From: Procambarus clarkii | Lineage: Eukaryota > Arthropoda > Malacostraca > Decapoda > Cambaridae | Direction: 5' to 3' | Length of the DNA: 64,000 nt | Assembly (NCBI RefSeq): GCF_040958095.1 | Contig: NC_091188.1 | Location: forward strand, 42,061,454 to 42,125,453 | In this document: one piece after another, positions 4,509 to 32,805 of the stretch | How positions within the stretch are numbered: the stretch's first letter is position 1 | Layout: every line of letters begins with the position of its first letter | Translations under genes and position numbers: made by a program | The notes under the pieces: generated by a model | Database searches by the model: none | What the model was told of the DNA's origin: nothing | The model's input: only the letters and a program-made list of their open reading frames with translations

Positions 4509-4509
4509 A

Positions 4510-10533: not shown

Positions 10534-10987
10534 TTTCCTACACTGAGCTTTAAATTTGCTCTGTATCTAGTGTTACCCAATCTCCCAATCTTTATGTACT
10601 TTACCCAAACAATTTTATCATTGTGTTCATTGCAGTCTTCTTTTATGTGCTAGCCATATACTGTATTGTGCCTGCTAAGTTTTGTTAAACTACCATTCAA
10701 GCTGTCATTGCAATCAATCTGAGCTACCTATGTGCTCTAATATACCTACAATTTTCTCTCATCTTTTATTTTTTTTCTTGTTGTGTAACTGTTATCATTT
10801 TTTATAAATTTGGCAAGTATTTACCTACTTAAAATTTTCTTAGATTAAGGACCTGCCCGAAACACTGCGCGTACTAGTGGCTTTACAAGATTGTAATTTC
10901 TATGCTAGTATCCTCACAATCTCAATGTACCTTCTTGTATATATATAAATAAAATAAATAAAATAAATAAAATAAATAAAAAATAAA
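10534..10987 (+). repeat. LINE-A 3' untranslated tail, copy 1
   Basis: Begins after the reverse transcriptase stop, contains the family signature 'ctgcccgaaacactgcgcgt' near 10854, and ends in a tandem AAATAAAT tail at about 10945-10987. A related tail lies at 56770-56915. Confidence 0.75.
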
Positions 10988-12289
10988 GGCTACAGCATCT
11001 ATTATCCCCATCTCACAGGATGGTCCACTTGTAGTGTGTGGAAATTCAAATTATGTTCGTTGTGGTACAAAAAATAGCAAAAGTTAATTTTTGCACTTCC
11101 TAGTAAGAATCCCTGCTTATCCTGGGAGGAATCCTTGCCATACATTGCAGGAAAGTGAGCTTAGTTACTATATATACTCTTTCATTACGGGCAAAACTTT
11201 ATCATTGTTATGACAAATCACTCCCACATTAATGGTACATTTAAACACACGAGTGCCACAAAATATATGATATGGTTTGACTCGATAATTAATATTATCT
11301 TTAATAAAATTGTTTAACAAGTGACATGAAATATGAACTCTTATTTGCTCTTCTACAAACAAAAAAATTCTACTCTTAATATTATCGCTAAAAGATTTAA
11401 AATCGAAACAGCCTTAGCTGGAGAATGAAGCCAAAGATACAAGTCACATCACAGCCCAAGATGATTTACCAATGGATTAGTAAACATGCCTAACCTTAAT
11501 ACAAGAATAAATGAAATGGCAGAAAGGCTATTGACCCACATTAACCCTAGAGAAATGTCAGCACTGTGGAGAAATGCCCGACAGACCACTGGAACATTTG
11601 GAACATTATCTAACACAGTGCATAGTTACACCCACAACAGACCACTGGAACATTATCTAACACAGTGCACAGTTACAAACCCATTAAGATTTCAACTTAG
11701 ATTCAACAGAGCAGTTGTTGTTGTTAAACACGTGGGTTAAAATCTTACTGAAGCGACCATACGAGTCATAAATACTCATAATCCGGCCACGTAAAACAGA
11801 AACAAGCAGCACTTAGTGGGCCAGCCAGAGGATTAGGGCCCGTGCAGGAATATCGCTGCTAAAAAGCCTAACCTATCAACTCACATGTGGTTTTTGCCAA
11901 TTTGAAAAACTGTCAAAAAGACTGATTATGACTTGATTTGATACATATCACATACACAATATGTTTGACTAATGGATCCTTTAACCTACCTAAAAATGAA
12001 GGAAACTGTAGAAGGATGCCAGCCACATCCTAAAGAGGAGAGTTTGTCAACAGATTTTAAATCCTTCCTACCTAACCCAAACCAACCAAGCCTCTCCTAG
12101 ATTAATACATGGTCATCTATTGATATATACACTGCAACTCAAGGAGAGACTATAGGAACTGAACGTCACATCACTAGAAGAAACATAATCACCACATCCA
12201 AGATTCTTATAGGAATTGATAGAGTAGATCAAGACCCTTTATCTAACACAGGGAGCACATGCACTAGGGGACACTGGTGAAAATTTAGT
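10988..12289. other. Unassigned spacer, copy 1
   Basis: AT-rich, with only short frames (the longest is 84 codons) that show no domain. A 30-40 bp motif containing 'accactggaacattatctaa' is repeated near 11580-11670. I see no gene. Confidence 0.4.
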
Positions 12290-12575
12290 ACCCAAATAAG
12301 CCATATACATATTACAAGGAACATTTTAGTGTGGGAGTAGTTAACGGATGGAATGCATTAGGAAGTAATGTGGTGGAGGCTGACTCCATACACAGTTTAT
12401 AATGTAGATATGATAGAGCCCAGTAGGCTCAGGAACCTGTACACACCTTTGGAACCTTTTCAAAGCATTATATGACAAAGACTGCTGGGAAGACAGGACA
12501 CCACGAGCGTAGCTCTCATCCTGAAACTACACTTAGGTAATTACACTTAGGTAATTACCAGTTGATTGATGGGAC
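12290..12575 (+). mobile_element. LINE-D tail fragment, copy 1
   Basis: Matches the tail at 51395-51550: 'gctgggaagacaggacacca', 'gagcgtagctctcatcctg' and a doubled terminal 'acacttaggtaatt' repeat. Its upstream part also matches the reverse strand of 43.93-44.03 kb ('gatagagcccagtaggctca'). Confidence 0.6.
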
Positions 12576-12689
12576 CAAAGAGCCAAAGTGCAAGCACAAC
12601 TAAGCAAGTACATCTAGGCGAGTACCATTATGATAATCAGAAAAGGAGCTTTGTCGAGTTCCCTTGGTGTACAATTTGACTATACCCCG

Positions 12690-12880
12690 TGCTGAAGACC
12701 TATTGGGGCAGATACAGTTGAGTTCATTCCTGCCTCACAAACAGGAATTCTGGGTTTGAATCCTATGCAGGACAGAAGTGGTTGGGCACATCTATTGCCT
12801 AATGCCCCTGTTCACCTAACAGTAAATAAGTAGCTACGACTTAGCTTGTTGGGATACAAGTTCCTTCGTACACAAGACGA
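12690..12880 (+). mobile_element. tRNA-derived SINE relic, copy 1
   Basis: A B-box-like 'gggtttgaatcct' near 12750 is followed by the SINE body block 'aatgcccctgttcacctaac' and 'agtaaataagtagct', shared with the clearer SINEs at 48163-48415 and 50095-50340. The A box is not clear. 12881-13550 shows no feature beyond an 11-base G run near 13060. Confidence 0.55.
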
Positions 12881-13550
12881 TTCGCAGGCGGAGTTTGAAA
12901 CTTACTTAACCTAACTCACCTCAACTTAACCTACCCAACTCAGCCCAATACAACCTAACCTGAGCTAATACAGTCTAACATAACAATATATACACTTTTA
13001 ACGAACAGAAAACTAGCTTCGTCAAATGGTCTGGTGGTCCATGCTTGGGGCTGCATCCTGGGGGGGGGGGGTCAACCTTAAGCGAGAGAGGAACCGAGGA
13101 ATTATTTTATCATAACCTAAACAACCTTAACACAGATAATCTAATGAGGTATATCGTTTTAACAATGTATAAAACGAACATTGTCTTATAAGGCAATATA
13201 GGATTTGGCCAGAAGCATAGACGTATACGGCCGCCATCACCTCTTATTTGTCAGTCTGCCAGCCCCACACACCCACAATACTCACTATTACTTCCTGTAA
13301 TCCTTCTTATCTCATCTGTAAGGAATGTACAAGTGTTAACAGTCCAAAATAAGGGCGAGGAGCACCTTGGTGTAGAGGCCAGACGTCGATGGTGTCTTGT
13401 GTTTACGGCGCTTAAACTACAGTTACAACTACCCTTTACAAGCCTCTGGTCGCTTAAGAAATTGTGTAGATTCCTCTAACTTGGACAAACATATCAATTG
13501 TATCACTAACTCTCCACGTATGTCAGTAGCTTAATTTAGAAACTGTACTT

Positions 13551-13820
13551 ATGGTCGATCTCGAACCAATTGTTGATCTCATCTCATCTGCAGTTGCTAG
13601 TAAATCCACTGTTTATGTGAATGAATGTCTGACCAGGTGCAGGCAAAAACTCTTTTTTAAACTGCGTGGCTTCTGCAAAAATTCCCCTACAATTAAACAC
13701 TGTTTTGTGCGAGATGGTAAAATTATAGCTAGGAGGACTGACACTGGAAAAACCTATTCAATAACCACAGAAGCTCACCTTAATTCTTTCCTCAGTGACT
13801 GTGGGATAGCTGCTGTATAG
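13551..13820 (+). CDS. LINE-B ORF1-like C-terminal domain, copy 1
   Basis: A small 89-codon frame upstream of the LINE-B polymerase frame. The order ECLTRCRQKLFFKLRGFCK, then CFVRDGKIIARRTDTGK, then a short 'TTEAHLNSFLSDCGI' end resembles the C-terminal domain of baculovirus FP-like proteins. That fold also occurs in ORF1 proteins of many animal CR1/L2-type LINEs. I infer the truncated remains of ORF1, an RNA-binding or chaperone partner of the polymerase. The N-terminal coiled coil or zinc finger expected of a full ORF1 is absent, so the element is probably 5'-truncated or decayed here. The assignment is from pattern only. Confidence 0.5.
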   Translation: MVDLEPIVDLISSAVASKSTVYVNECLTRCRQKLFFKLRGFCKNSPTIKHCFVRDGKIIARRTDTGKTYSITTEAHLNSFLSDCGIAAV

Positions 13821-14227
13821 CCTGAATTCAGATTATAATCTCTTATAACTACCTTTGTGTACTCTAGCTCTGCCTTTCCCTTCAAAAGGTTTTAACTTTA
13901 GTTTAAAAAAAAAAAAAAAGAAAAAGAATAATATTGTCATCTTTATTATTGTCTTTTTTTTTCTTTTTACTCCCATGTTCCTTAGTACACTGGCTTTGCC
14001 TGTGTCCTCTAGTATTAACTTCATTATCCAATGTTCCTGAGTGTATCTCTATTTAAACTACCTCAGTTTGTTTTAGTGTAACTTTAGTATTCAATTATAG
14101 TGTACTTATATTAGTATAGTAAGCAAGCTTATTATCTTATAGATTTCATAATTGTTTTTTTTACTTTTTTGGTCATCTATTGTTATTAATTATTCTAGTT
14201 AATTTTTTACATTCCTAGTTCCCATTA

Positions 14228-14260
<33 letters not shown>

Positions 14261-14380
14261 CTTTTTACTTAAAATTACCATTAAGTTTATTTTACTTTAG
14301 AATTTTTAATCTACTTTTTTCTTTGTTTTCTATTTTGTAATTTGCCATTCTTACCTTGTTTTCCTGCAATCAGCCTTTTT
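13821..14380 (+). other. LINE-B inter-ORF region with A and T runs, copy 1
   Basis: About 560 bases between the small frame and the polymerase ATG. It contains an A run near 13903-13919 and a long T run near 14231-14260. These homopolymers differ in length in the second copy (26202-26224 and 26530-26562), accounting for part of the size difference between the copies. Confidence 0.6.
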
Positions 14381-17305
14381 ATGCAGACAAGTATAGACCC
14401 AGAACTAAACCTCTTATCCACTATCTATGACAATCATCACTTCAATGATCAAAATTGCAGATATTTTACAGCACATGATGTAAACAATGTATTAACAGAT
14501 AATCTCAATATCTCTGTAATCAACTTGAACGTTAGATCCCTAGGTAAACACTTCGATGATGTTAGTGCCTTGATTGAAACTATTGACAACAAATTCTCTT
14601 TTATTATACTTACTGAAACGTGGTTGAAAGAGGATAATACTCAACTCTTTAACATGCCTAACTACTCGGCAATTCACAACTGTCGTCAAATGCAGAGAGG
14701 TGGTGGTACTGCTCTTTACTACCACCAAGAACTAACATGCTTAAAAATAATTAGAACTAGAGACTGCTGTGGGGAGTATATCTTCGCCAGTTTCAGAGTC
14801 AAGGGTGCCGAGTCTGTCCTGTCTGTGGGTGCAGTCTATAGAATTCCTAACACTGATGTGTCTGAATTCAACTCAAACCTTAGAAATCTAATACTAGATA
14901 ACAGATTGAACAAAAACCATCTAATTATCGCAGGGGACTTTAATATTGACCTCTGCGAGCCTGAACACCCTACTGCTGTTAGCTTCCTCAACTGTATGAA
15001 TTCCTGCTTCCTCATACCCTTAATCACTAGACCAACTAGAATCACTGATAGTACTGCTACGACTCTAGATCACATCTGGACCAACATAACCTCTCCGCTT
15101 ACTTCAGGTATAATCACCGATAGCACTACAGACCATTACCCCACATTTCTCTTAACTAACATTAGCAAACCACCTCTAGAGACAAGGGAGTTAAGCTTTA
15201 GGCTGCACAATGAAACTGCTATAAACAATTTTATAACTGCTGCTGATAATGTCAACTGGGAGTCCGAGTTAGGTAACATAGGGGACATCAACCTAGCAGT
15301 GAAATCTTTTCTACAAACAACTCTTAGCCTTTATAACACCCACTGTCCTATGCTTACTAAACAAGTCACAAGCAAAAGACTTAACAATCCTTGGCTTACA
15401 AAGGGAATACTTAAATCCATTAACAAAAAACACGACCTTGAGAAGAAGTATAGGCTAGGAACAGTCTCCAAAGAATTCTCAAAGAATTACTCGTTATTGC
15501 TATCTAAAATAATTAGACGAGCCAAAACTAAATACTATGAAGATAAATTTACCCAAATAAAGAGCAACATTAAAAAAACTTGGAGCACAATTTCACAAAT
15601 ATTGGGATCAAAGAAGATTTTAAATAACAAACCAACACTCCTTTCCAATAACGTTGGTCAGCTTTCAGCTTCTGGTTCTGCTATTGAGTTCAATAGGTTC
15701 TTCTCTTCCATTGGGTCATCCCTTGCAAATGATATTCCATCTTCCTGTACTGATGTTAAGGACTATCTTACAGGTAACTATCCACAGTCTCTGTACCTAA
15801 AGCCTACTAGTTCCACTGATGTCAATGAAATAATCCTTTCCCTTAAAACCAAGTCTAGTGCCCTCGAGGAGATACCAACTTTAATTTACAAAAAAGCCTC
15901 CAGATCTCTAGCCCCTGCTATTGCATTGCTCTTCAACAAGTCACTTGAACTCCAAACCTTTCCTGACATTCTAAAAAAAGCAAGGGTAACCCCTGTCTAC
16001 AAATGTGGTGATCTCACTGATGTTAACAACTACAGACCTATATCAATCCTGCCTAACTTGTCAAAAATATTCGAAAAGCTAATCTACAAGCAGCTTTACT
16101 CTTTTCTAGCCAAACACAATATACTTAGCTCTTGTCAATATGGCTTCAGACCCAAAAAAAGCACTAACGATGCACTTATTAGTATGATTAACTTAATTCA
16201 CGCAGCTCTTGATAAAAAGGAGTTTCCTGTTGGGTTATTTGTGGACCTGCGTAAGGCTTTTGACACTGTCAACCATCAAAACCTTCTTCTTAAATTACAT
16301 CATTATGGAGTCAGAGGACACTCCCTGCAATACCTCAAATCTTATCTTACTGACAGGCTCCAGTATGTTTCTGTGAATAATACAATTTCTCCCACCCTAC
16401 CCATCAACATTGGTGTTCCTCAGGGCAGCATACTTGGCCCTCTCCTCTTTCTCATCTACATTAATGATCTTCCAAATGCCTCCCAACACCTCAAACCAAT
16501 TCTATTTGCTGACGACACAACCTTCATTTACTCCAGTCCTGACCCCCTTGCTCTAAATGCCACAGTAAATACTGAGCTAGAGAAAGTCCATCTTTGGCTA
16601 ACTGCCAACAAACTCACCCTTAACATTGACAAAACGTTTTATATTCTGTTTGGCAATAAATCCTCTAATCAGATAAATCTCAAAATAAACAATACCCAAA
16701 TTTGTAACAAATTAGATGGCAAATTCCTTGGCGTTCTCATCGACCACAAGCTGAATTTCCAGGGTCACATTCTAAATATATCAAAAAAAGTTTCAAAAAC
16801 TGTTGGCATTCTTTCTAAGATCAGATATTATGTACCCCGCCCTGCCCTGGTTACTCTCTATTACTCCCTCATCTATCCATACCTCAACTATGGTATTTGT
16901 GCTTGGGGCTCTACTACCCAAAATCATTTACGTCCTCTCATTACCCAACACAAAGCTGCTATTAGGACAATAACCAACTCTGGCCCCAGACATCACTCGG
17001 TACCCTTACTCAAATCTCTGAATATGTTAGATATTAAGTCACTGCACATTCTCTCTTGTGTATTATACATATATAAAACGCTGAACTGTAATGCCAATCC
17101 TGACCTCAAAAGCTTCATTGAAGGTTGTATCAGAACCCATGAGCACCACACCAGGAATAAATACAGTTTTGATATTCCTAGAGTACGACTTAATCAAACT
17201 AGAAATGCTCTACAAATCAAGGGGCCCAGAATGTGGAATGACCTTCCCAACCATGTTAAAGACTGTACCTCTCTCAACCAGTTTAAGATAAAAACTAAAC
17301 ACTAG
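14381..17305 (+). CDS. LINE-B endonuclease / reverse transcriptase, intact frame
   Basis: A single 974-codon frame for the second protein of a CR1/L2-like non-LTR retrotransposon, which nicks DNA and reverse-transcribes its own RNA. The endonuclease (about residues 1-260) shows NLNVRSLGKHFDD, FIILTETWLKE, IIAGDFNIDL, TTLDHIWTN and TTDHYPTFLL. The reverse transcriptase (about 490-770) shows [65 protein letters not shown] and ILFADDTTFIY (FADD near 16.51 kb). A C-terminal block YLNYGICAWGSTT follows. The frame is open for 13 codons upstream, but the first ATG is at 14381. No lesion is visible, so this is the best candidate in the window for a recently active LINE protein. The duplicate at 26.6-29.6 kb is broken by a 4-bp insertion. 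Confidence 0.9.
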   Translation: MQTSIDPELNLLSTIYDNHHFNDQNCRYFTAHDVNNVLTDNLNISVINLNVRSLGKHFDDVSALIETIDNKFSFIILTETWLKEDNTQLFNMPNYSAIHNCRQMQRGGGTALYYHQELTCLKIIRTRDCCGEYIFASFRVKGAESVLSVGAVYRIPNTDVSEFNSNLRNLILDNRLNKNHLIIAGDFNIDLCEPEHPTAVSFLNCMNSCFLIPLITRPTRITDSTATTLDHIWTNITSPLTSGIITDSTTDHYPTFLLTNISKPPLETRELSFRLHNETAINNFITAADNVNWESELGNIGDINLAVKSFLQTTLSLYNTHCPMLTKQVTSKRLNNPWLTKGILKSINKKHDLEKKYRLGTVSKEFSKNYSLLLSKIIRRAKTKYYEDKFTQIKSNIKKTWSTISQILGSKKILNNKPTLLSNNVGQLSASGSAIEFNRFFSSIGSSLANDIPSSCTDVKDYLTGNYPQSLYLKPTSSTDVNEIILSLKTKSSALEEIPTLIYKKASRSLAPAIALLFNKSLELQTFPDILKKARVTPVYKCGDLTDVNNYRPISILPNLSKIFEKLIYKQLYSFLAKHNILSSCQYGFRPKKSTNDALISMINLIHAALDKKEFPVGLFVDLRKAFDTVNHQNLLLKLHHYGVRGHSLQYLKSYLTDRLQYVSVNNTISPTLPINIGVPQGSILGPLLFLIYINDLPNASQHLKPILFADDTTFIYSSPDPLALNATVNTELEKVHLWLTANKLTLNIDKTFYILFGNKSSNQINLKINNTQICNKLDGKFLGVLIDHKLNFQGHILNISKKVSKTVGILSKIRYYVPRPALVTLYYSLIYPYLNYGICAWGSTTQNHLRPLITQHKAAIRTITNSGPRHHSVPLLKSLNMLDIKSLHILSCVLYIYKTLNCNANPDLKSFIEGCIRTHEHHTRNKYSFDIPRVRLNQTRNALQIKGPRMWNDLPNHVKDCTSLNQFKIKTKH

Positions 17306-17670
17306 CTAATAAATTCCCTGTAACCTACCTCACTCCTTTATTGTCAACCCATGTCTGTTATTTTATTTTATTATTATTATTTTTTTTTTAATCAACACTG
17401 TTTGTCAACCTATTGTATTTGTGCTGCTTTTTCAGTCATGTTCCCCCTTTTTTTATCTTTATTTGTATTTGTTTTCAACACTTTTTATTCTTTTGCTCAA
17501 TTAGTATTAAGTTCTAGATATTAATGTTTTTCTTGCCCGAAACGCATTGCGTAATAGTGGCTTTAGGCATTGTATGTACTAGCTCTATCTATATATCAAT
17601 CCATTAATGTAACATCACTTGTATGTATGTACCTTACCTGAATAAACATATTTATTTATTTTATTTATTT
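17306..17670 (+). repeat. LINE-B 3' untranslated region and tail, copy 1
   Basis: Contains the signature 'gcccgaaacgcattgcgtaa' near 17535, an AATAAA at about 17641, and ends in a (TTTA)n-rich tail near 17650-17670. Confidence 0.75.
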
Positions 17671-17730
17671 GATGTGACGACTTATATTGAATTTTGTAAC
17701 TAGCTCATCAAGATTGTAACTTGCTTAGCT

Positions 17731-17870
17731 AAATAAATAAAATAAAAAAAAATATGCTTATTCAGGAAAGGTACATACATACAAGTGATGTTACATTAAT
17801 GGATCGATATATAGATGGAGCTAGTACATACAATGCCTAAAGCCACTATTACGCAATGCGTTTCGGGCAG
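17731..17870 (-). mobile_element. Inverted LINE-B 3' end, copy 1
   Basis: Reverse complement of the LINE-B 3' terminus (17535-17668), starting with an AAATAAAT tail and ending at 'gcgtttcgggcag'. It lies about 60 bp from the forward tail, so the two form a tail-to-tail inverted pair. Confidence 0.75.
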
Positions 17871-18049
17871 ATGAATTGAAATGAATGAAATGAATTATGG
17901 GGTTCAGTCTCTGCCAATATGTGCCTCTTTAACCCTCTCCACTACCTTCCACAACATGGGTATGGGGTGCATAATAAATGAACTAAACTAACTATTGTGT
18001 GACAGTCAATACGACCATTATCTATGTTACGATCATTATCTATGTATTT

Positions 18050-18134
18050 TATGTACTAGCTCTATCTATAAATCCAACATTATGTTTAACTCATCTTCTA
18101 TGTATGTACTTTTACCTGAATAAGCATTTTGCTT
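18050..18134 (+). mobile_element. Second short LINE-B-family 3' end, copy 1
   Basis: A diverged forward fragment of the same 3' terminus ('atgtactagctctatctata' ... 'acctgaataagca'), ending a few bases before the LTR at 18142. 17871-18049 shows nothing else I can name. Confidence 0.55.
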
Positions 18135-18141
18135 TTGATGT

Positions 18142-18480
18142 TGTAGCGAGTAGATTATCCCAATAATATACTCGCTCCAAATATAGTGTTAATATGCCTG
18201 TCAACCTTTGGAGATGAATGAGGTGAGGCGTTGCCCGGGCAGCACGGTGAGGTGTTGCCCGAGCAATATAAGCGGCAAGAATAGCAAACATTCAAACTAG
18301 TCTACTTTCAAGTGTGGTCTAGAGCAGACACTTGCGAGATACTGTACCGACGCTCAGTGCGCTCAACTCACACCAAAGTATCACCGGTGTACTTCTGTAT
18401 ATTCGACCAAATATATATATAGTATCTTAGTGTCTGTGTTTATTTGTCACCATACTTTACGTAACAATAGAACCGTTACA
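18142..18480 (+). mobile_element. Left LTR of a Ty3/Gypsy-like retrotransposon, copy 1
   Basis: A 339-bp block starting TGTAGCGAG and ending GTTACA (TG...CA), immediately followed by TTGGTGACCCC, a primer-binding-site pattern seen after 5' LTRs of Gypsy or BEL elements. A TATA-like 'tataag' lies at 18267-18272. No second LTR is present, so this is the 5' end of a truncated element rather than a complete one. The boundaries are inferred from the TG/CA ends and the primer-binding site. Confidence 0.65.
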
Positions 18481-18809
18481 TTGGTGACCCCAGAGAGTTT
18501 CGACGATACCCAGCCACGATGGACTACAACATGGACTCTCACTGGACCTCTACTGCTACTGTTTGCTGTGGTGCTGTGATGGAACACTGCCAACACCCTC
18601 GCCACAGCTATGATTTTCATCGCGTCCATCTCTGCATTTTCATCTACTACGGCTTGCTGCTCCACGATCACTACTCACTCATCTGGCAGCTTCATCAGTA
18701 ACTACATAATGTGTGATCTACAGCCTGTCCTGCCGACTCTCCGTCGCTGCCAGGGCACTGCTTGTTCTACAGGGGCGCCCACGAAAGCTGTTCTTTCCTC
18801 AGATTCATT
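18481..18809 (+). mobile_element. LTR-element internal remnant with primer-binding site, copy 1
   Basis: The primer-binding-site-like TGGTGACCCC begins at 18482. An ATG at 18519 opens a 60-codon frame (MDYNMDSHWTSTATV...), possibly the start of gag, which ends near 18701. The element is then cut off by the minisatellite at 18810. No polymerase sequence follows. Confidence 0.5.
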
Positions 18810-20500
18810 CAGGACCCCACAGGGACACCAGGACCCCCATAGGGACACCAGGACCCACCACAGGGACACCAGGACCCCCACAGGGACACCAGGACCCCCA
18901 CAGGGACACCAGGACCCCCCACAGGGACGCCAGGACCCCCACAGGGACACCAGGACCCCCACAGAGACATCAGGACCCCCACAGGTACACCAGGACCCCC
19001 ACAGGGACACTAGGACCAAACAGGGATACCAGGACCCCCACAGGGACACCAGGGCCCCCACAGGTACACCAGGACCCCCACAGGTACACCAAACCCTACA
19101 GGTACACCAGGACCGCCACAGGTACACCAGGACCCCCACAGGGACATCAGGGCTTCCACAGGGACACCAGGACCCCCACAGGGACACCAGGACTCCCACA
19201 GCGACACCAGGGGCCCCCACAGGGACACCAGGGCCCCCACAGGGACACTAGGGTCCCCCACAGGTACACTAGGACCCCCAAAAGTACACCAGGATCCCCC
19301 ACAGGTACACCAGGAACCCCACAGGTACACCAGAACCCCCAAAGGTACACCAGGACCCCCCACAGGTACACCAGGACCCCCACAGGTACACCAGGACCCC
19401 CAAAGGTACACCAGGACCCCCCACAGGTACTCCAGGACCCTCACATGTACACCAGGACCCCCACAGGTACACCAGGACCCCCAACAGGGACACCAGAGCC
19501 GCCACAGGTACACCAGGACCCCCACAGGGACACCAGGACCCCCACAGGGACACCAGGACCAAACAGGGACACCAGGACCCCCACAGGGACACCAGGACCC
19601 ACCACAGGGACACCAGGACCCCCACACGGACACCAGGACCCCCACAGGGACACCAGGACCCCCACAGGGACTCCATGACCACCACAGGGACACCAGGACC
19701 CCTGCAGGGACACGAGGGCCCCCACAGGTACACCAGGACCCCCACAGGTACAACAGACCCTACAGGTACACCAGGATCCCCACAGGGACACCAGGGCCCC
19801 CCACAGGGACACCAGAGCTTCCACAGGGACACCAGGATTCTCACAGGTACACCAGGACCCCCACAGGGACACCAGGACCCCCACAGGTACACCAGGACCC
19901 CCACAGGGACACCAGGGCCCCTCACAGGGACACCAGGACCCCCCACAGGGACACCAGGACCCCCACAGGGACACCAGGACCCCCACAGGGACACCAGGAC
20001 CCCCACAGGGACACCAAGACCCCCCACAGGGACACCAGGACCCCAACAGGGACACCAGGACCCTCACAGGGACACCAGGACCCCCCACAGGGACACCAGG
20101 ACCCCCCACAGGGACACCAGGACCCCCACAGGGACACCAGGAACCCCACAGGGACACCAGGACCCCCACAGGGACACCAAGACCCCCCCACAGGGAAACC
20201 AGGACCCCCACAGGGACACCAGGACCCCACAGGGACACCAGGACCCCCCACAGGGACACCAGGACCCCACAGGGACACCAGGACCCCCATAGGGACACCA
20301 GGACCCACCACAGGGACACCAGGACCCCCACAGGGACACCAGGACCCCCCACAGGGACGCCAGGACCCCCACAGGGACACCAGGACCCCCACAGGTACAC
20401 CAGGACCCCCACAGGGACACTAGGACCAAAGAGGGATACCAGGACCCCCACAGGGACACCAGGGCCCCCACAGGTACACCAGGACCCCCACAGGTACACC
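18810..20500. repeat. 20-bp minisatellite array, copy 1 (about 85 units)
   Basis: Tandem repeat with the consensus unit caggacccccacagggacac and a common variant with 'caggtacac'. Some units are 19 or 21 bp. Because 20 is not a multiple of 3 and the unit contains no stop on either strand, long frames run through it in all directions. They read as PQGHQDPHRDTRTPTGTPGP on the plus strand and as Gly/Val/Trp/Cys-rich peptides on the minus strand. I treat none of these frames as genes. Confidence 0.95.
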
Positions 20501-21150
20501 TGGTTGATACCTGGTTGATGGGGTTTTGGGAGTTCTTCTACTCCCCAAGCCCAGCCCGAGGCCAGGCTCGACTTGTGAGAGTTTGGTCCACCAGGCTGTT
20601 GCTTGGAGCGGCCCGCAGGCCCACATACCCACCACAGCCCGGTTGGTCCGGCACTCCTTGGAGGAATAAATCTAGTTTCCTCTTGAAAATGTCCACGGTT
20701 GTTCCGGCAATATTTCTTATGCTTGCTGGGAGGACGTTGAACAACCGCGGACCTCTGATGTTTATACAGTGTTCTCTGATTGTGCCTATGGCACCTCTGC
20801 TCTTCATTGGTTCTATTCTACATTTTCTTCCATGTCGTTCACTCCAGTACGTTGTTATTTTACTGTGTAGATTTGGTACTTGGCCCTCCAGTATCTTCCA
20901 GGTGTATATTATTTGATATCTCTCTCGTCTTCTTTCTAGTGAGTACATTTGGAGGGCTTTGAGACGATCCCAATAATTTAGGTGCTTTATTGCATCTATG
21001 CGTGCCGTATATGTTCTCTGTATTCCCTCTATTTCAGCAATCTCTCCTGCTCTGAAGGGGGAAGTGAGTACTGAGCAGTACTCAAGACGGGACAACACAA
21101 GTGACTTGAAGAGTACAACCATTGTGATGGGATCCCTGGATTTGAAAGTT
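20501..21150 (-). mobile_element. LINE-C tail, copy 2: hybrid at the duplication junction
   Basis: Same 5'-truncated LINE tail as 8201-8852, joined directly to the minisatellite at 20500. Its first part has the bases of the right-hand copy at 32806 ('ttttggg', 'agcccagccc', 'ggttggtcc', G at 20851). Its last part has those of the left-hand copy (C at 20985, 'attgcatct', 'tgctctg', 'gtgacttg'), and like that copy it joins LINE-A at 21150. The change lies between 20852 and 20984. Confidence 0.9.
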
Positions 21151-22831
21151 AAAGATTTGATGTGTATACACCGTCAACTGATTTAGAAATGGCAAATGAA
21201 TTTAATAGCTTCTTTTCATCAGTTGGTGCTAATCTTGCCAGTAAAATCCCACAGACTCAGACACATATTAACACACATCTCTCAGGCAGCTATCCAAACG
21301 CTCTTCTCCTTTCACCAGTCAGCCCGGCAGATGTTGTGTCCATCATACACTCTCTAACAACCAAGGCAGGGAACACCAGTGAAATTCCGTCCATTGTATA
21401 CAAGAGCGCCTCCCATGCCCTTGCCCCACCCATAGCTCTGTTCAACAAATCTATAGTGTCACACCTTCCCTGATATCCTTAAAAAGGCAAGAGTAACGCC
21501 AGTCTATAAAGGAGGCAATCTGGTGGACATAAACAATTATAGACCAATATCAAATCTACCCATTCTATCAAAAATATTTGAAAAAATTATCTACAAACAG
21601 CTCTATTCATACCTCGTAAAATTTAACATACTCAGCCCCTGCCAGTTTGGCTTCCGGTCCCAAAAGAGCACCAACGATGCAATCATTAGTCTCCTTGACG
21701 TAATCTACTCAGCCCTTGACAAAAATGAGTTTCCGATTGGACTCTTCATTGACCTAAGAAAAGCCTTTGATACTGTTAATCACAACTACCTCTTACTTAA
21801 ACTCCAGCATTATAGAATCCAAGGCCTTGCCCTTGACTACATCCGATCCTATCTTAGTGACAGACACCAATGTGTAACCATCAATGATACAACTTCTTCC
21901 ACTCTACCAATTACCGTTGGAGTGCCACAGGGCAGCATCTTAGGACCTCTTTTATTTCTTATATATATCAATGATCTGCCTAATGTCTCTTAATATTCTT
22001 AAACCTATATTGTTTGCTGATGATACTACCCTTATCTATTCAGACCCCAACCCACATACACTAAATAATGTTGTGAATAATGAATTAAAAAAAGTCCACT
22101 TATGGATGTCAACTAACAAACTAACATTAAACATAGAAAAGACCTACTACATCTTATTTGGAAGCAAATCATCGAATGCAATTCAGCTACAGATAGACAA
22201 CATTAACATCAGTAATAAAAATGACGGCAAGTTTCTTGGCCTATTCCTAGACAAGAGACTCAACTTCAGCACCCACATTCAACACATAACTAAGAAAGTC
22301 TCTAAAACAGTTGGTATACTCTCTAAAATAAGATATTATGTTCCTAACTCTGCTCTCCTCTCACTATATTATGCACTAATCTACCCCTATCTTAATTATG
22401 GTATCTGTGCATGGGGGTCTACCACTGCAAACCACCTTAAGCCCATCATCACACAGCAAAAATCTGCTATCAGAATAATAACTAACTCTGCTTTCAGACA
22501 ACACTCAGCTCCCTTGTTTAAATCCCTAAACTTGCTAAATATTAACTCCCTCCACACATTCTCTTGTGTCAACTACATTTACAAAACCCTGTTCTTAAAT
22601 GCAAACCATGCTCTGAAACTCTCCCTGGACAGATGTAATAGGACTCATTATCACCACACCAGAAATAAATATCTCTTTGATATCCCCAGAGTCAAACTTA
22701 ATCTATGTAAACACTCTATGCAAATTAAGGGACCTAGTCTATGGAACTCACTCCCTAGTGAATTGAAAAGCTGTCAAACTTTTGCCTCATTTAAAAACAA
22801 AAACAAAAAGTACCTAAATTCATCTTCGTAG
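21151..22831 (+). pseudogene. LINE-A reverse transcriptase half, copy 2
   Basis: Duplicate of 8853-10533 with the same two frame changes (near 21.47 and 21.99 kb). No endonuclease half lies upstream, because the duplication boundary falls inside the LINE-C insertion. Confidence 0.85.
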
Positions 22832-23285
22832 TTTCCTACACTGAGCTTTAAATTTGCTCTGTATCTAGTGTTACCCAATCTCCCAATCTTTATGTACTTT
22901 ACCCAAACAATTTTATCATTGTGTTCATTGCAGTCTTCTTTTATGTGCTAGCCATATACTGTATTGTGCCTGCTAAGTTTTGTTAAACTACCATTCAAGC
23001 TGTCATTGCAATCAATCTGAGCTACCTATGTGCTCTAATATACCTACAATTTTCTCTCATCTTTTATTTTTTTTCTTGTTGTGTAACTGTTATCATTTTT
23101 TATAAATTTGGCAAGTATTTACCTACTTAAAATTTTCTTAGATTAAGGACCTGCCCGAAACACTGCGCGTACTAGTGGCTTTACAAGATTGTAATTTCTA
23201 TGCTAGTATCCTCACAATCTCAATGTACCTTCTTGTATATATATAAATAAAATAAATAAAATAAATAAAATAAATAAAAAATAAA
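22832..23285 (+). repeat. LINE-A 3' untranslated tail, copy 2
   Basis: Duplicate of 10534-10987, including the AAATAAAT tail. Confidence 0.75.
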
Positions 23286-25847
23286 GGCTACAGCATCTAT
23301 TATCCCCATCTCACAGGATGGTCCACTTGTAGTGTGTGGAAATTCAAATTATGTTCGTTGTGGTACAAAAAATAGCAAAAGTTAATTTTTGCACTTCCTA
23401 GTAAGAATCCCTGCTTATCCTGGGAGGAATCCTTGCCATACATTGCAGGAAAGTGAGCTTAGTTACTATATATACTCTTTCATTACGGGCAAAACTTTAT
23501 CATTGTTATGACAAATCACTCCCACATTAATGGTACATTTAAACACACGAGTGCCACAAAATATATGATATGGTTTGACTCGATAATTAATATTATCTTT
23601 AATAAAATTGTTTAACAAGTGACATGAAATATGAACTCTTATTTGCTCTTCTACAAACAAAAAAATTCTACTCTTAATATTATCGCTAAAAGATTTAAAA
23701 TCGAAACAGCCTTAGCTGGAGAATGAAGCCAAAGATACAAGTCACATCACAGCCCAAGATGATTTACCAATGGATTAGTAAACATGCCTAACCTTAATAC
23801 AAGAATAAATGAAATGGCAGAAAGGCTATTGACCCACATTAACCCTAGAGAAATGTCAGCACTGTGGAGAAATGCCCGACAGACCACTGGAACATTTGGA
23901 ACATTATCTAACACAGTGCATAGTTACACCCACAACAGACCACTGGAACATTATCTAACACAGTGCACAGTTACAAACCCATTAAGATTTCAACTTAGAT
24001 TCAACAGAGCAGTTGTTGTTGTTAAACACGTGGGTTAAAATCTTACTGAAGCGACCATACGAGTCATAAATACTCATAATCCGGCCACGTAAAACAGAAA
24101 CAAGCAGCACTTAGTGGGCCAGCCAGAGGATTAGGGCCCGTGCAGGAATATCGCTGCTAAAAAGCCTAACCTATCAACTCACATGTGGTTTTTGCCAATT
24201 TGAAAAACTGTCAAAAAGACTGATTATGACTTGATTTGATACATATCACATACACAATATGTTTGACTAATGGATCCTTTAACCTACCTAAAAATGAAGG
24301 AAACTGTAGAAGGATGCCAGCCACATCCGAAAGAGGAGAGTTTGTCAACAGATTTTAAATCCTTCCTACCTAACCCAAACCAACCAAGCCTCTCCTAGAT
24401 TAATACATGGTCATCTATTGATATATACACTGCAACTCAAGGAGAGACTATAGGAACTGAACGTCACATCACTAGAAGAAACATAATCACCACATCCAAG
24501 ATTCTTATAGGAATTGATAGAGTAGATCAAGACCCTTTATCTAACACAGGGAGCACATGCACTAGGGGACACTGGTGAAAATTTAGTACCCAAATAAGCC
24601 ATATACATATTACAAGGAACATTTTAGTGTGGGAGTAGTTAACGGATGGAATGCATTAGGAAGTAATGTGGTGGAGGCTGACTCCATACACAGTTTATAA
24701 TGTAGATATGATAGAGCCCAGTAGGCTCAGGAACCTGTACACACCTTTGGAACCTTTTCAAAGCATTATATGACAAAGAGTGCTGGGAAGACAGGACACC
24801 ACGAGCGTAGCTCTCATCCTGAAACTACACTTAGGTAATTACACTTAGGTAATTACCAGTTGATTGATGGGACCAAAGAGCCAAAGTGCAAGCACAACTA
24901 AGCAAGTACATCTAGGCGAGTACCATTATGATAATCAGAAAAGGAGCTTTGTCGAGTTCCCTTGGTGTACAATTTGACTATACCCCGTGCTGAAGACCTA
25001 TTGGGGCAGATACAGTTGAGTTCATTCCTGCCTCACAAACAGGAATTCTGGGTTTGAATCCTATGCAGGACAGAAGTGGTTGGGCACATCTATTGCCTAA
25101 TGCCCCTGTTCACCTAACAGTAAATAAGTAGCTACGACTTAGCTTGTTGGGATACAAGTTCCTTCGTACACAAGACGATTCGCAGGCGGAGTTTGAAACT
25201 TACTTAACCTAACTCACCTCAACTTAACCTACCCAACTCAGCCCAATACAACCTAACCTGAGCTAATACAGTCTAACATAACAATATATACACTTTTAAC
25301 GAACAGAAAACTAGCTTCGTCAAATGGTCTGGTGGTCCATGCTTGGGGCTGCATCCTGGGGGGGGGGGTCAACCTTAAGCGAGAGAGGAACCGAGGAATT
25401 ATTTTATCATAACCTAAACAACCTTAACACAGATAATCTAATGAGGTATATCGTTTTAACAATGTATAAAACGAACATTGTCTTATAAGGCAATATAGGA
25501 TTTGGCCAGAAGCATAGACGTATACGGCCGCCATCACCTCTTATTTGTCAGTCTGCCAGCCCCACACACCCACAATACTCACTATTACTTCCTGTAATCC
25601 TTCTTATCTCATCTGTAAGGAATGTACAAGTGTTAACAGTCCAAAATAAGGGCGAGGAGCACCTTGGTGTAGAGGCCAGACGTCGATGGTGTCTTGTGTT
25701 TACGGCGCTTAAACTACAGTTACAACTACCCTTTACAAGCCTCTGGTCGCTTAAGAAATTGTGTAGATTCCTCTAACTTGGACAAACATATCAGTTGTAT
25801 CACTAACTCTCCACGTATGTCAGTAGCTTAATTTAGAAACTGTACTT
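23286..25847. other. Spacer with LINE-D tail and SINE relic, copy 2
   Basis: Duplicate of 10988-13550. The LINE-D tail is at about 24589-24874 and the SINE relic at about 24989-25179. I see no gene. Confidence 0.6.
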
Positions 25848-26117
25848 ATGGTCGATCTCGAACCAATTGTTGATCTCATCTCATCTGCAGTTGCTAGTAA
25901 ATCCACTGTTTATGTGAATGAATGTCTGACCAGGTGCAGGCAAAATCTCTTTTTTAAACTGCGTGGCTTCTGCAAAAATTCCCCTACAATTAAACACTGT
26001 TTTGTGCGAGATGGTAAAATTATAGCTAGGAGGACTGACACTGGAAAAACCTATTCAATAACCACAGAAGCTCACCTTAATTCTTTCCTCAGTGACTGTG
26101 GGATAGCTGCTGTATAG
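25848..26117 (+). CDS. LINE-B ORF1-like C-terminal domain, copy 2
   Basis: Same 89-codon frame as 13551-13820, with one noticed change (a Lys codon AAA in copy 1 is Asn AAT here, near 25947). The resemblance to an FP-like ORF1 C-terminal domain is the same. 26118-26682 is the inter-ORF region with length-variable A and T runs. Confidence 0.5.
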   Translation: MVDLEPIVDLISSAVASKSTVYVNECLTRCRQNLFFKLRGFCKNSPTIKHCFVRDGKIIARRTDTGKTYSITTEAHLNSFLSDCGIAAV

Positions 26118-26526
26118 CCTGAATTCAGATTATAATCTCTTATAACTACCTTTGTGTACTCTAGCTCTGCCTTTCCCTTCAAAAGGTTTTAACTTTAGTT
26201 TAAAAAAAAAAAAAAAAAAAAAAAGAATAATATTGTCATCTTTATTATTGTCTTTTTTTTTCTTTTTACTCCCATGTTCCTTAGTACACTGGCTTTGCCT
26301 GTGTCCTCTAGTATTAACTTCATTATCCAATGTTCCTGAGTGTATCTCTATTTAAACTACCTCAGTTTGTTTTAGTGTAACTTTAGTATTCAATTATAGT
26401 GTACTTATATTAGTATAGTAAGCAAGCTTATTATCTTATAGATTTCATAATTGTTTTTTTTACTTTTTTGGTCATCTATTGTTATTAATTATTCTAGTTA
26501 ATTTTTTACATTCCTAGTTCCCATTA

Positions 26527-26562
<36 letters not shown>

Positions 26563-26682
26563 CTTTTTACTTAAAATTACCATTAAGTTTATTTTACTTT
26601 AGAATTTTTAATCTACTTTTTTCTTTGTTTTCTATTTTGTAATTTGCCATTCTTACCTTGTTTTCCTGCAATCAGCCTTTTT

Positions 26683-29611
26683 ATGCAGACAAGTATAGAC
26701 CCAGAACTAAACCTCTTATCCACTATCTATGACAATCATCACTTCAATGATCAAAATTGCAGATATTTTACAGCACATGATGTAAACAATGTATTAACAG
26801 ATAATCTCAATATCTCTGTAATCAACTTGAACGTTAGATCCCTAGGTAAACACTTCGATGATGTTAGTGCCTTGATTGAAACTATTGACAACAAATTCTC
26901 TTTTATTATACTTACTGAAACGTGGTTGAAAGAGGATAATACTCAACTCTTTAACATGCCTAACTACTCGGCAATTCACAACTGTCGTCAAATGCAGAGA
27001 GGTGGTGGTACTGCTCTTTACTACCACCAAGAACTAACATGCTTAAAAATAATTAGAACTATATAGAGACTGCTGTGGGGAGTATATCTTCGCCAGTTTC
27101 AGAGTCAAGGGTGCCGAGTCTGTCCTGTCTGTGGGTGCAGTCTATAGAATTCCTAACACTGATGTGTCTGAATTCAACTCAAACCTTAGAAATCTAATAC
27201 TAGATAACAGATTGAACAAAAACCATCTAATTATCGCAGGGGACTTTAATATTGACCTCTGCGAGCCTGAACACCCTACTGCTGTTAGCTTCCTCAACTG
27301 TATGAATTCCTGCTTCCTCATACCCTTAATCACTAGACCAACTAGAATCACTGATAGTACTGCTACGACTCTAGATCACATCTGGACCAACATAACCTCT
27401 CCGCTTACTTCAGGTATAATCACCGATAGCACTACAGACCATTACCCCACATTTCTCTTAACTAACATTAGCAAACCACCTCTAGAGACAAGGGAGTTAA
27501 GCTTTAGGCTGCACAATGAAACTGCTATAAACAATTTTATAACTGCTGCTGATAATGTCAACTGGGAGTCCGAGTTAGGTAACATAGGGGACATCAACCT
27601 AGCAGTGAAATCTTTTCTACAAACAACTCTTAGCCTTTATAACACCCACTGTCCTATGCTTACTAAACAAGTCACAAGCAAAAGACTTAACAATCCTTGG
27701 CTTACAAAGGGAATACTTAAATCCATTAACAAAAAACACGACCTTGAGAAGAAGTATAGGCTAGGAACAGTCTCCAAAGAATTCTCAAAGAATTACTCGT
27801 TATTGCTATCTAAAATAATTAGACGAGCCAAAACTAAATACTATGAAGATAAATTTACCCAAATAAAGAGCAACATTAAAAAAACTTGGAGCACAATTTC
27901 ACAAATATTGGGATCAAAGAAGATTTTAAATAACAAACCAACACTCCTTTCCAATAACGTTGGTCAGCTTTCAGCCTCTGGTTCTGCTATTGAGTTCAAT
28001 AGGTTCTTCTCTTCCATTGGGTCATCCCTTGCAAATGATATTCCATCTTCCTGTACTGATGTTAAGGACTATCTTACAGGTAACTATCCACAGTCTCTGT
28101 ACCTAAAGCCTACTAGTTCCACTGATGTCAATGAAATAATCCTTTCCCTTAAAACCAAGTCTAGTGCCCTCGAGGAGATACCAACTTTAATTTACAAAAA
28201 AGCCTCCAGATCTCTAGCCCCTGCTATTGCATTGCTCTTCAACAAGTCACTTGAACTCCAAACCTTTCCTGACATTCTAAAAAAAGCAAGGGTAACCCCT
28301 GTCTACAAATGTGGTGATCTCACTGATGTTAACAACTACAGACCTATATCAATCCTGCCTAACTTGTCAAAAATATTCGAAAAGCTAATCTACAAGCAGC
28401 TTTACTCTTTTCTAGCCAAACACAATATACTTAGCTCTTGTCAATATGGCTTCAGACCCAAAAAAAGCACTAACGATGCACTTATTAGTATGATTAACTT
28501 AATTCACGCAGCTCTTGATAAAAAGGAGTTTCCTGTTGGGTTATTTGTGGACCTGCGTAAGGCTTTTGACACTGTCAACCATCAAAACCTTCTTCTTAAA
28601 TTACATCATTATGGAGTCAGAGGACACTCCCTGCAATACCTCAAATCTTATCTTACTGACAGGCTCCAGTATGTTTCTGTGAATAATACAATTTCTCCCA
28701 CCCTACCCATCAACATTGGTGTTCCTCAGGGCAGCATACTTGGCCCTCTCCTCTTTCTCATCTACATTAATGATCTTCCAAATGCCTCCCAACACCTCAA
28801 ACCAATTCTATTTGCTGACGACACAACCTTCATTTACTCCAGTCCTGACCCCCTTGCTCTAAATGCCACAGTAAATACTGAGCTAGAGAAAGTCCATCTT
28901 TGGCTAACTGCCAACAAACTCACCCTTAACATTGACAAAACGTTTTATATTCTGTTTGGCAATAAATCCTCTAATCAGATAAATCTCAAAATAAACAATA
29001 CCCAAATTTGTAACAAATTAGATGGCAAATTCCTTGGCGTTCTCATCGACCACAAGCTGAATTTCCAGGGTCACATTCTAAATATATCAAAAAAAGTTTC
29101 AAAAACTGTTGGCATTCTTTCTAAGATCAGATATTATGTACCCCGCCCTGCCCTGGTTACTCTCTATTACTCCCTCATCTATCCATACCTCAACTATGGT
29201 ATTTGTGCTTGGGGCTCTACTACCCAAAATCATTTACGTCCTCTCATTACCCAACACAAAGCTGCTATTAGGACAATAACCAACTCTGGCCCCAGACATC
29301 ACTCGGTACCCTTACTCAAATCTCTGAATATGTTAGATATTAAGTCACTGCACATTCTCTCTTGTGTATTATACATATATAAAACGCTGAACTGTAATGC
29401 CAATCCTGACCTCAAAAGCTTCATTGAAGGTTGTATCAGAACCCATGAGCACCACACCAGGAATAAATACAGTTTTGATATTCCTAGAGTACGACTTAAT
29501 CAAACTAGAAATGCTCTACAAATCAAGGGGCCCAGAATGTGGAATGACCTTCCCAACCATGTTAAAGACTGTACCTCTCTCAACCAGTTTAAGATAAAAA
29601 CTAAACACTAG
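26683..29611 (+). pseudogene. LINE-B endonuclease / reverse transcriptase, frameshifted copy 2
   Basis: Duplicate of the intact frame at 14381-17305. A 4-bp insertion (ATAT) at 27061-27064 shifts the frame and gives an immediate stop at 27064-27066, inside the endonuclease domain. The rest of the protein is open in another frame from 27131 to 29611 (826 codons, all reverse transcriptase blocks intact). One silent-looking T/C change was seen near 27975. The insertion looks like a 2- or 4-bp slippage, so it arose after the duplication or is a sequencing error in one copy. Confidence 0.88.
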
Positions 29612-29975
29612 CTAATAAATTCCCTGTAACCTACCTCACTCCTTTATTGTCAACCCATGTCTGTTATTTTATTTTATTATTATTATTTTTTTTTAATCAA
29701 CACTGTTTGTCAACCTATTGTATTTGTGCTGCTTTTTCAGTCATGTTCCCCCTTTTTTTATCTTTATTTGTATTTGTTTTCAACACTTTTTATTCTTTTG
29801 CTCAATTAGTATTAAGTTCTAGATATTAATGTTTTTCTTGCCCGAAACGCATTGCGTAATAGTGGCTTTAGGCATTGTATGTACTAGCTCTATCTATATA
29901 TCAATCCATTAATGTAACATCACTTGTATGTATGTACCTTACCTGAATAAACATATTTATTTATTTTATTTATTT
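29612..29975 (+). repeat. LINE-B 3' untranslated region and tail, copy 2
   Basis: Duplicate of 17306-17670, differing by a base or so in a T run. Confidence 0.75.
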
Positions 29976-30035
29976 GATGTGACGACTTATATTGAATTTT
30001 GTAACTAGCTCATCAAGATTGTAACTTGCTTAGCT

Positions 30036-30175
30036 AAATAAATAAAATAAAAAAAAATATGCTTATTCAGGAAAGGTACATACATACAAGTGATGTTACA
30101 TTAATGGATCGATATATAGATGGAGCTAGTACATACAATGCCTAAAGCCACTATTACGCAATGCGTTTCGGGCAG
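30036..30175 (-). mobile_element. Inverted LINE-B 3' end, copy 2
   Basis: Duplicate of 17731-17870. Confidence 0.75.
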
Positions 30176-30446
30176 ATGAATTGAAATGAATGAAATGAAT
30201 TATGGGGTTCAGTCTCTGCCAATATGTGCCTCTTTAACCCTCTCCACTACCTTCCACAACATGGGTATGGGGTGCATAATAAATGAACTAAACTAACTAT
30301 TGTGTGACAGTCAATACGACCATTATCTATGTTACGATCATTATCTATGTATTTTATGTACTAGCTCTATCTATAAATCCAACATTATGTTTAACTCATC
30401 TTCTATGTATGTACTTTTACCTGAATAAGCATTTTGCTTTTGATGT

Positions 30447-30785
30447 TGTAGCGAGTAGATTATCCCAATAATATACTCGCTCCAAATATAGTGTTAATAT
30501 GCCTGTCAACCTTTGGAGATGAATGAGGTGAGGCGTTGCCCGGGCAGCACGGTGAGGTGTTGCCCGAGCAATATAAGCGGCAAGAATAGCAAACATTCAA
30601 ACTAGTCTACTTTCAAGTGTGGTCTAGAGCAGACACTTGCGAGATACTGTACCGACGCTCAGTGCGCTCAACTCACACCAAAGTATCACCGGTGTACTTC
30701 TGTATATTCGACCAAATATATATATAGTATCTTAGTGTCTGTGTTTATTTGTCACCATACTTTACGTAACAATAGAACCGTTACA
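30447..30785 (+). mobile_element. Left LTR of a Ty3/Gypsy-like retrotransposon, copy 2
   Basis: Duplicate of 18142-18480, followed by the same primer-binding-site-like TGGTGACCCC at 30787. The internal remnant runs to 31114, where the minisatellite cuts it off. Because both LTRs belong to duplicated blocks in direct repeat, they should not be read as the two ends of one LTR retrotransposon. Confidence 0.65.
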
Positions 30786-31114
30786 TTGGTGACCCCAGAG
30801 AGTTTCGACGATACCCAGCCACGATGGACTACAACATGGACTCTCACTGGACCTCTACTGCTACTGTTTGCTGTGGTGCTGTGATGGAACACTGCCAACA
30901 CCCTCGCCACAGCTATGATTTTCATCGCGTCCATCTCTGCATTTTCATCTACTACGGCTTGCTGCTCCACGATCACTACTCACTCATCTGGCAGCTTCAT
31001 CAGTAACTACATAATGTGTGATCTACAGCCTGTCCTGCCGACTCTCCGTCGCTGCCAGGGCACTGCTTGTTCTACAGGGGCGCCCACGAAAGCTGTTCTT
31101 TCCTCAGATTCATT

Positions 31115-32805
31115 CAGGACCCCACAGGGACACCAGGACCCCCATAGGGACACCAGGACCCACCACAGGGACACCAGGACCCCCACAGGGACACCAGGAC
31201 CCCCACAGGGACACCAGGACCCCCCACAGGGACGCCAGGACCCCCACAGGGACACCAGGACCCCCACAGAGACATCAGGACCCCCACAGGTACACCAGGA
31301 CCCCCACAGGGACACTAGGACCAAACAGGGATACCAGGACCCCCACAGGGACACCAGGGCCCCCACAGGTACACCAGGACCCCCACAGGTACACCAAACC
31401 CTACAGGTACACCAGGACCGCCACAGGTACACCAGGACCCCCACAGGGACATCAGGGCTTCCACAGGGACACCAGGACCCCCACAGGGACACCAGGACTC
31501 CCACAGCGACACCAGGGGCCCCCACAGGGACACCAGGGCCCCCACAGGGACACTAGGGTCCCCCACAGGTACACTAGGACCCCCAAAAGTACACCAGGAT
31601 CCCCCACAGGTACACCAGGAACCCCACAGGTACACCAGAACCCCCAAAGGTACACCAGGACCCCCCACAGGTACACCAGGACCCCCACAGGTACACCAGG
31701 ACCCCCAAAGGTACACCAGGACCCCCCACAGGTACTCCAGGACCCTCACATGTACACCAGGACCCCCACAGGTACACCAGGACCCCCAACAGGGACACCA
31801 GAGCCGCCACAGGTACACCAGGACCCCCACAGGGACACCAGGACCCCCACAGGGACACCAGGACCAAACAGGGACACCAGGACCCCCACAGGGACACCAG
31901 GACCCACCACAGGGACACCAGGACCCCCACACGGACACCAGGACCCCCACAGGGACACCAGGACCCCCACAGGGACTCCATGACCACCACAGGGACACCA
32001 GGACCCCTGCAGGGACACGAGGGCCCCCACAGGTACACCAGGACCCCCACAGGTACAACAGACCCTACAGGTACACCAGGATCCCCACAGGGACACCAGG
32101 GCCCCCCACAGGGACACCAGAGCTTCCACAGGGACACCAGGATTCTCACAGGTACACCAGGACCCCCACAGGGACACCAGGACCCCCACAGGTACACCAG
32201 GACCCCCACAGGGACACCAGGGCCCCTCACAGGGACACCAGGACCCCCCACAGGGACACCAGGACCCCCACAGGGACACCAGGACCCCCACAGGGACACC
32301 AGGACCCCCACAGGGACACCAAGACCCCCCACAGGGACACCAGGACCCCAACAGGGACACCAGGACCCTCACAGGGACACCAGGACCCCCCACAGGGACA
32401 CCAGGACCCCCCACAGGGACACCAGGACCCCCACAGGGACACCAGGAACCCCACAGGGACACCAGGACCCCCACAGGGACACCAAGACCCCCCCACAGGG
32501 AAACCAGGACCCCCACAGGGACACCAGGACCCCACAGGGACACCAGGACCCCCCACAGGGACACCAGGACCCCACAGGGACACCAGGACCACCATAGGGA
32601 CACCAGGACCCACCACAGGGACACCAGGACCCCCACAGGGACACCAGGACCCCCCACAGGGACGCCAGGACCCCCACAGGGACACCAGGACCCCCACAGG
32701 TACACCAGGACCCCCACAGGGACACTAGGACCAAAGAGGGATACCAGGACCCCCACAGGGACACCAGGGCCCCCACAGGTACACCAGGACCCCCACAGGT
32801 ACACC
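31115..32805. repeat. 20-bp minisatellite array, copy 2
   Basis: Duplicate of 18810-20500, unit for unit as far as I compared, with a difference near 32589 (accaccatag versus acccccatag) and another near 32.6 kb. This near-identity in a repeat class that normally changes quickly points to very recent duplication. Confidence 0.93.

What the first reader, a model, noticed from the sequence alone, without database searches (positions are those of the whole stretch)
20501..21150. Hybrid LINE-C tail at the duplication junction: footprint of LINE-mediated unequal recombination
Seen: three LINE-C tails in the same orientation begin near 8201, 20501 and 32806. At sites where the outer two differ, the middle copy follows the right one up to base 20851 (G, versus A at 8553 in the left copy). 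From base 20985 it follows the left one (C, versus T at 33290 in the right copy). The identical 133-bp stretch between these sites contains the switch. Known: recombination between same-direction repeats duplicates the intervening DNA and leaves a hybrid repeat in the middle. Inference: LINE-C copy 1 (inside LINE-A) and copy 3 (inside the minisatellite) recombined and duplicated 12.3 kb.
Basis: partly seen in the sequence, partly recalled or inferred. Interest (0 to 1): 0.75.

Follow-up and report, generated by a model that had tools for sequence, protein, structure and literature searches.

The report
Recombinant retrotransposon at crayfish duplication junction
In what looks like crayfish DNA, two earlier copies of the same jumping element appear to have recombined with each other, which duplicated the 12.3 kb between them and left a half-and-half copy of the element at the seam; the process is already well known, but this is a clean example.

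Summary
A 12.3-kb tandem duplication (8202-20499, 20500-32804) is bounded by three LINE-C 3' tails: R1 8202-8852, R2 20500-21150, R3 32805-33574. R1 and R3 differ at 10 sites; R2 follows R3 at the first four and R1 at the last six, with one switch in the identical 133 bp 20852-20984 and no private change. R1-R3 divergence (10 of 651) is about 26-fold that between unit copies (7 of 11,647).

R1 and R3 are separate insertions. R3 carries 119 bp more at its 5' end and sits in a minisatellite, flanked by a 7-bp GGTACAC duplication; R1 splits an older LINE. R2 has R3's left and R1's right flank. That is the geometry of unequal recombination between R1 and R3.

The best protein match is Procambarus clarkii: probably a crayfish. 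LINE-LINE recombination is known (PMC4344489); this is a member of that kind with a short, 651-bp substrate. Without reads a false duplication cannot be excluded; crossover and replicative template switching cannot be told apart.

The parts
8202..8852 (-). R1: LINE-C 3' tail, 5'-truncated, inserted in LINE-A; left parent
20500..21150 (-). R2: hybrid LINE-C tail at the duplication junction
20852..20984 (.). 133-bp stretch identical in R1, R2 and R3 that contains the switch
32805..33574 (-). R3: LINE-C 3' tail with 119 bp more 5' sequence (33456-33574), inserted in the minisatellite; right parent
8202..20499 (.). unit copy 1 (12,298 bp)
20500..32804 (.). unit copy 2 (12,305 bp)
6909..8201 (+). 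LINE-A 5' part with endonuclease domain, not duplicated
8853..10509 (+). LINE-A 3' part with reverse transcriptase; copied at 21151-22807
18810..20499 (.). 20-bp minisatellite to the left of R2 (copy of 31115-32804)
31115..40144 (.). 20-bp minisatellite array interrupted by R3
32798..32804 (.). left copy of R3's target-site duplication, GGTACAC (also 20493-20499 beside R2)
33576..33582 (.). right copy of R3's target-site duplication, GGTACAC (one extra G at 33575); absent to the right of R2

Best explanation
Before the duplication the locus held one unit. It ran from LINE-A split by R1, through LINE-B, to a minisatellite split by R3. R1 and R3 are independent, 5'-truncated insertions of one LINE family in the same orientation, 12.3 kb apart and 98.5% alike over 651 bp. 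R3 on one chromatid or homologue paired with R1 on another and exchanged within an identical 133-bp stretch. The product keeps R1, gains a second unit, and carries at the seam R2, which is R3 on its left and R1 on its right. Shown: the duplication as assembled, the separate insertions, the flank mismatch and the single switch. Inferred: that the event was a homologous exchange, most simply an unequal crossover in the germ line.
For: Ten of 10 informative sites fit one switch, in the direction the flanks predict, with no R2-private site. Tails are about 26-fold more diverged than the unit, P = 2e-9, which fits R1 and R3 being older than the duplication. Their 5' truncations and target sites differ while the 3' ends are shared. 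R3 has the GGTACAC duplication read against uninterrupted minisatellite copies at 19083, 31388, 35104, 36934 and 38263 (not five independent copies: 19083/31388 are the two units); R2 has only its left copy. LINE-A is collinear with LINE-B to 8198 and again from 8900. R2 aligns without gaps to both parents, 651 of 651 columns. Two sites resolved as shared-derived point the predicted way: 8228 (R2 with R3) and 20985 (R2 with R1), the latter on one 78% relative.
Against: At the five sites resolved as private (two R1, three R3) R2 merely has the state of the relatives, and three sites are unresolved. The outgroups are few: the right-hand sites rest on one relative at 60 kb, and four of the six rows on the left are tandem pieces of one LINE-C copy. 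The K/R codon at 33358 gives conflicting polarity: K in 8 of 8 more distant proteins looked at, R in P0001, and the R1-type base in the 60-kb relative. R1 has no clean target-site duplication. A 651-bp substrate is shorter than the 1-4 kb documented for human LINE pairs. No reads, no unduplicated allele, and the window's own assembly was never reachable.
Confidence: 0.8

Rival explanations
1. Replicative template switching (break-induced replication or FoSTeS/MMBIR) moved from R3 back to R1 through their homology and copied the unit again; no reciprocal crossover took place. (This overlaps with the best explanation where the switch is driven by homologous pairing, so the odds given are not exclusive and do not add to one.)
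For: It gives the same product and needs only a short identical stretch. PMC4344489's Discussion says Alu-Alu rearrangements are now thought to come rather from such routes or from homeologous recombination, and 651 bp is short for LINE recombination.
Against: The seam is clean, without inserted or lost bases, and the identical 133-bp stretch is far longer than microhomology. Nothing here separates the two routes.
Confidence: 0.12
2. The second unit is an assembly artefact: two haplotypes joined end to end by a false overlap between R3 of one and R1 of the other, which would also make a hybrid tail.
For: Outside the tails the units differ by only 7 substitutions and 5 indels, four of the indels in homopolymers; that could be allelic. 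No read evidence could be examined.
Against: The longest exact R1-R3 match is 205 bp and the whole homology is 651 bp at 98.5%, less than long-read assemblers normally accept as an overlap (own knowledge). The window holds no N across a 9-kb minisatellite stretch, so it probably comes from long reads (inference).
Confidence: 0.12
3. The three tails are copies of one insertion, made by the duplication itself, and the apparent switch is a chance layout of later private mutations in R1 and R3.
For: R2 carries the state of the relatives at the five sites resolved as private.
Against: R3 has 119 bp of LINE-C absent from R1 and R2, plus its own target-site duplication. It needs 10 changes where about 0.6 are expected, none of them on R2 (0.017) and perfectly ordered (1/210).
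Confidence: 0.02

Closest known systems
LINE-LINE nonallelic homologous recombination in humans (Startek et al. 2015, PMC4344489; abstract, Introduction and Discussion read)
   Same: Directly oriented LINE copies recombine; the intervening DNA is duplicated or deleted and the breakpoint lies inside the LINE.
   Different: Events confirmed there share as little as 4 kb, with enrichment down to 1 kb. Here the homology is 651 bp, the LINE is a different family, and the host is probably a crayfish.
Alu-Alu mediated rearrangements (as mentioned in PMC4344489; otherwise recalled)
   Same: Short, diverged, same-direction retroelements with a chimeric element at the seam (recalled).
   Different: A SINE in primates; PMC4344489 says those events are now thought to be rather products of replicative routes or homeologous recombination.
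Ty-Ty recombination in yeast (as mentioned in PMC4344489)
   Same: Dispersed retroelement copies act as recombination substrates.
   Different: LTR elements; longer homology (recalled).

Membership tests
LINE-mediated NAHR tandem duplication | two homologous copies in direct orientation at the ends of the unit | tested here: met
   R1 and R3, same strand, 98.5% over 651 bp
LINE-mediated NAHR tandem duplication | copies pre-date the duplication as separate insertions | tested here: met
   different 5' truncations and target sites; about 26-fold excess divergence
LINE-mediated NAHR tandem duplication | middle copy is a hybrid with one switch and flanks from both parents | tested here: met
   10 of 10 sites, one switch; R3-type left flank, R1-type right flank
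LINE-mediated NAHR tandem duplication | seam without non-templated bases | tested here: met
   R2 aligns without gaps to both parents over 651 bp
LINE-mediated NAHR tandem duplication | reciprocal deletion or unduplicated allele exists | not testable with these tools
   own assembly unreachable (8 unanswered requests); no population data
LINE-mediated NAHR tandem duplication | homology of 1-4 kb or more (usual range in humans, not strictly defining) | tested here: not met
   651 bp against the range in PMC4344489
non-LTR retrotransposon (LINE-C) | protein related to reverse-transcriptase polyproteins | tested here: met
   97% to a Procambarus clarkii protein (P0001); some relatives carry PF00078, e.g. 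P0003. The fragment itself has no Pfam hit at E 0.001
non-LTR retrotransposon (LINE-C) | 5' truncation with fixed 3' end and target-site duplication | tested here: inconclusive
   R3: GGTACAC duplication; common 3' end in R1, R3 and the 42.9-kb copy. R1: truncation and 3' end met, but no clean target-site duplication

The most novel reading that the evidence does not exclude
In repeat-rich crayfish genomes, short 3'-anchored LINE tails of a few hundred bases are routine homologous-recombination substrates. This locus, now with three near-identical tails at 12.3-kb spacing, would be a live copy-number-variable array in which a whole second LINE (LINE-B) is multiplied without retrotransposition.
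Probability: 0.2. Interest if true: 0.45.

Novelty: new member of a known kind. Interest (0 to 1): 0.3.

Why it matters
From sequence alone it shows the marks expected of a LINE-mediated unequal exchange: two parents, a switch point and mismatched flanks. It does so with a substrate of only 651 bp, probably in a crayfish. It also shows how a long LINE with an intact frame (LINE-B, unit 1) can be copied passively by recombination between fragments of another LINE on either side of it; the second copy now carries a 4-bp insertion.

Tried and rejected
Rejected: R3 as a truncated third unit (it has 119 bp more LINE-C, and its own target-site duplication); three separate LINE insertions (R2's flanks are those of R3 and R1); a chance layout of private mutations.

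Led nowhere: a clean target-site duplication for R1 was not found. The left flank AAGGATGATAT and the right flank AAAGATTTGATGT are only loosely alike, and LINE-B is too distant to give the empty site. The polarity table is partial. In one search all 240 retrieved proteins were aligned together (120 of the 165 hits and 120 of the 158 hits, the lists being capped), although the second 120 came from the LINE-B search; for polarity I used only nine rows that I had chosen (P0001-P0007, P0014, P0028). Seven paper searches, whose lists are capped (for instance 10 of 7,386 papers), showed no title or abstract start that reports LINE-mediated duplication in crayfish; only listings were seen, so this is not proof of absence. 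PMC12842422 and PMC7814009 were searched for heterozygosity passages and gave no figure that I could use.

Mended on checking: one search printed 80 of 1,235 rows, and the rest were not seen; the non-independence of the outgroup rows and of the empty-site copies is now stated; the membership row on truncation and target-site duplication is now 'inconclusive' because R1 lacks a clean one; the second LINE-B copy is said to be broken.

Full report
Source. The LINE-C fragment of R3 (243 aa) is 97% identical to an uncharacterized protein of Procambarus clarkii, and its next named relatives in the list are from Cherax quadricarinatus. The source is therefore probably a crayfish close to or identical with P. 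clarkii; the species itself is inference. The assembly could not be reached in eight requests.

The duplication. A self-comparison gives one long near-identical direct match, 8202-21150 against 20500-33455, 12,958 columns at 99.78% (80 of 1,235 rows were printed, the other 79 printed rows all lying in the minisatellite; the remaining rows were not seen). The aligned columns hold 17 substitutions and 5 indel events. Ten substitutions lie in the LINE-C tails and seven in the remaining 11,647 bp. Four indels are in homopolymers; one is a TATA insertion at 27060-27063. The minisatellite blocks left of R2 and of R3 differ by one substitution (20286) and no length change.

The three tails. R1 is 8202-8852, R2 20500-21150, R3 32805-33574. 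They encode, on the minus strand, the C-terminal part of a protein related to reverse transcriptases, so their common left edge is the element's 3' end and the right edges are 5' truncation points. A related copy at 42.9 kb starts at the same 3' position. R3 continues 119 bp past the point where R1 and R2 stop, and that part still matches another LINE-C relative at 59.9-60.5 kb. R3 and that relative are in opposite orientation.

The switch. R1 and R3 differ at 10 sites. R2 equals R3 at 20526, 20553, 20645 and 20851, and R1 at 20985, 20991, 20992, 20994, 21052 and 21104. There is no R2-private change. The switch lies in 20852-20984, 133 bp identical in all three; the longest identical R1-R3 stretch is 205 bp, elsewhere. 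Divergence between R1 and R3 (1.54%) is about 26 times that between the units (0.06%), Fisher P = 2e-9.

Separate insertions. LINE-A matches LINE-B collinearly up to 8198 and again from 8900, so R1 interrupts it. R3 interrupts the 20-bp minisatellite 31115-40144. The uninterrupted stretch CACAGGTACACCAAACCC occurs at five other places in the two arrays (19083, 31388, 35104, 36934, 38263; some of these are copies of each other), and R3 is flanked on both sides by GGTACAC (32798-32804 and 33576-33582), a 7-bp target-site duplication. R2 has GGTACAC on its left and LINE-A on its right. This mismatch is what recombination between R1 and R3 must leave and what an insertion would not leave. R1's own target-site duplication could not be read cleanly.

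Polarity. With relatives inside the window, two sites are private to R1 (8347, which makes a stop codon, and 8553) and three to R3 (those at R2 20992, 21052, 21104). Two are shared-derived in the predicted direction: 8228, T in R2 and R3 against C in five of six rows, four of which are tandem pieces of one LINE-C copy; and 20985, C in R1 and R2. Three are unresolved (8255, and those at R2 20991 and 20994). All right-hand sites rest on one 78% relative. Protein relatives give a conflicting reading at the 33358 codon. So polarity is mildly supportive; the weight rests on geometry, ordering and divergence.

Mechanism. Shown: duplication as assembled, independent parents, hybrid with one switch, mismatched flanks, clean seam. 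Inferred: homologous exchange between R3 and R1 on sister chromatids or homologues. Replicative template switching would leave the same DNA and stays open (0.12; it overlaps with the best explanation). A false join of haplotypes stays open (0.12) because no reads were at hand; it is disfavoured because a false overlap would have to be accepted on 651 bp at 98.5% (own knowledge of assemblers).

Comparison. LINE-LINE nonallelic homologous recombination is established in humans; PMC4344489 (abstract, Introduction and Discussion read) reports confirmed events with as little as 4 kb of homology and statistical enrichment down to 1 kb. The present case works the same way with a shorter substrate in another LINE family. 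It is a new member of a known kind.

Noticed in passing
14285-17305 and 26587-29611: LINE-B has an intact 1006-aa endonuclease plus reverse transcriptase frame in unit 1; the unit-2 copy is split by a 4-bp TATA insertion at 27060-27063.
   Followed up: partly
41059-41374 and 42895-43372: A 24-bp array (13 copies) and a 120-bp array (4 copies) are tandem amplifications of LINE-C 3' tail sequence: satellites born from a LINE end.
   Followed up: partly
33575-40144: The minisatellite holds a higher-order duplication with an offset of about 1,830 bp (33576-38307 against 35406-40144, 91%).
   Followed up: no
1102-6379: An element with long inverted terminal repeats (three adjoining arms of 250, 69 and 89 nt, 93-97% complementary) and a reverse transcriptase frame at 3702-4559 on the minus strand; DIRS-like by recall.
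   Followed up: partly
53625-57765: PH and RhoGEF domain pieces on the minus strand, perhaps exons of one host gene.
   Followed up: no
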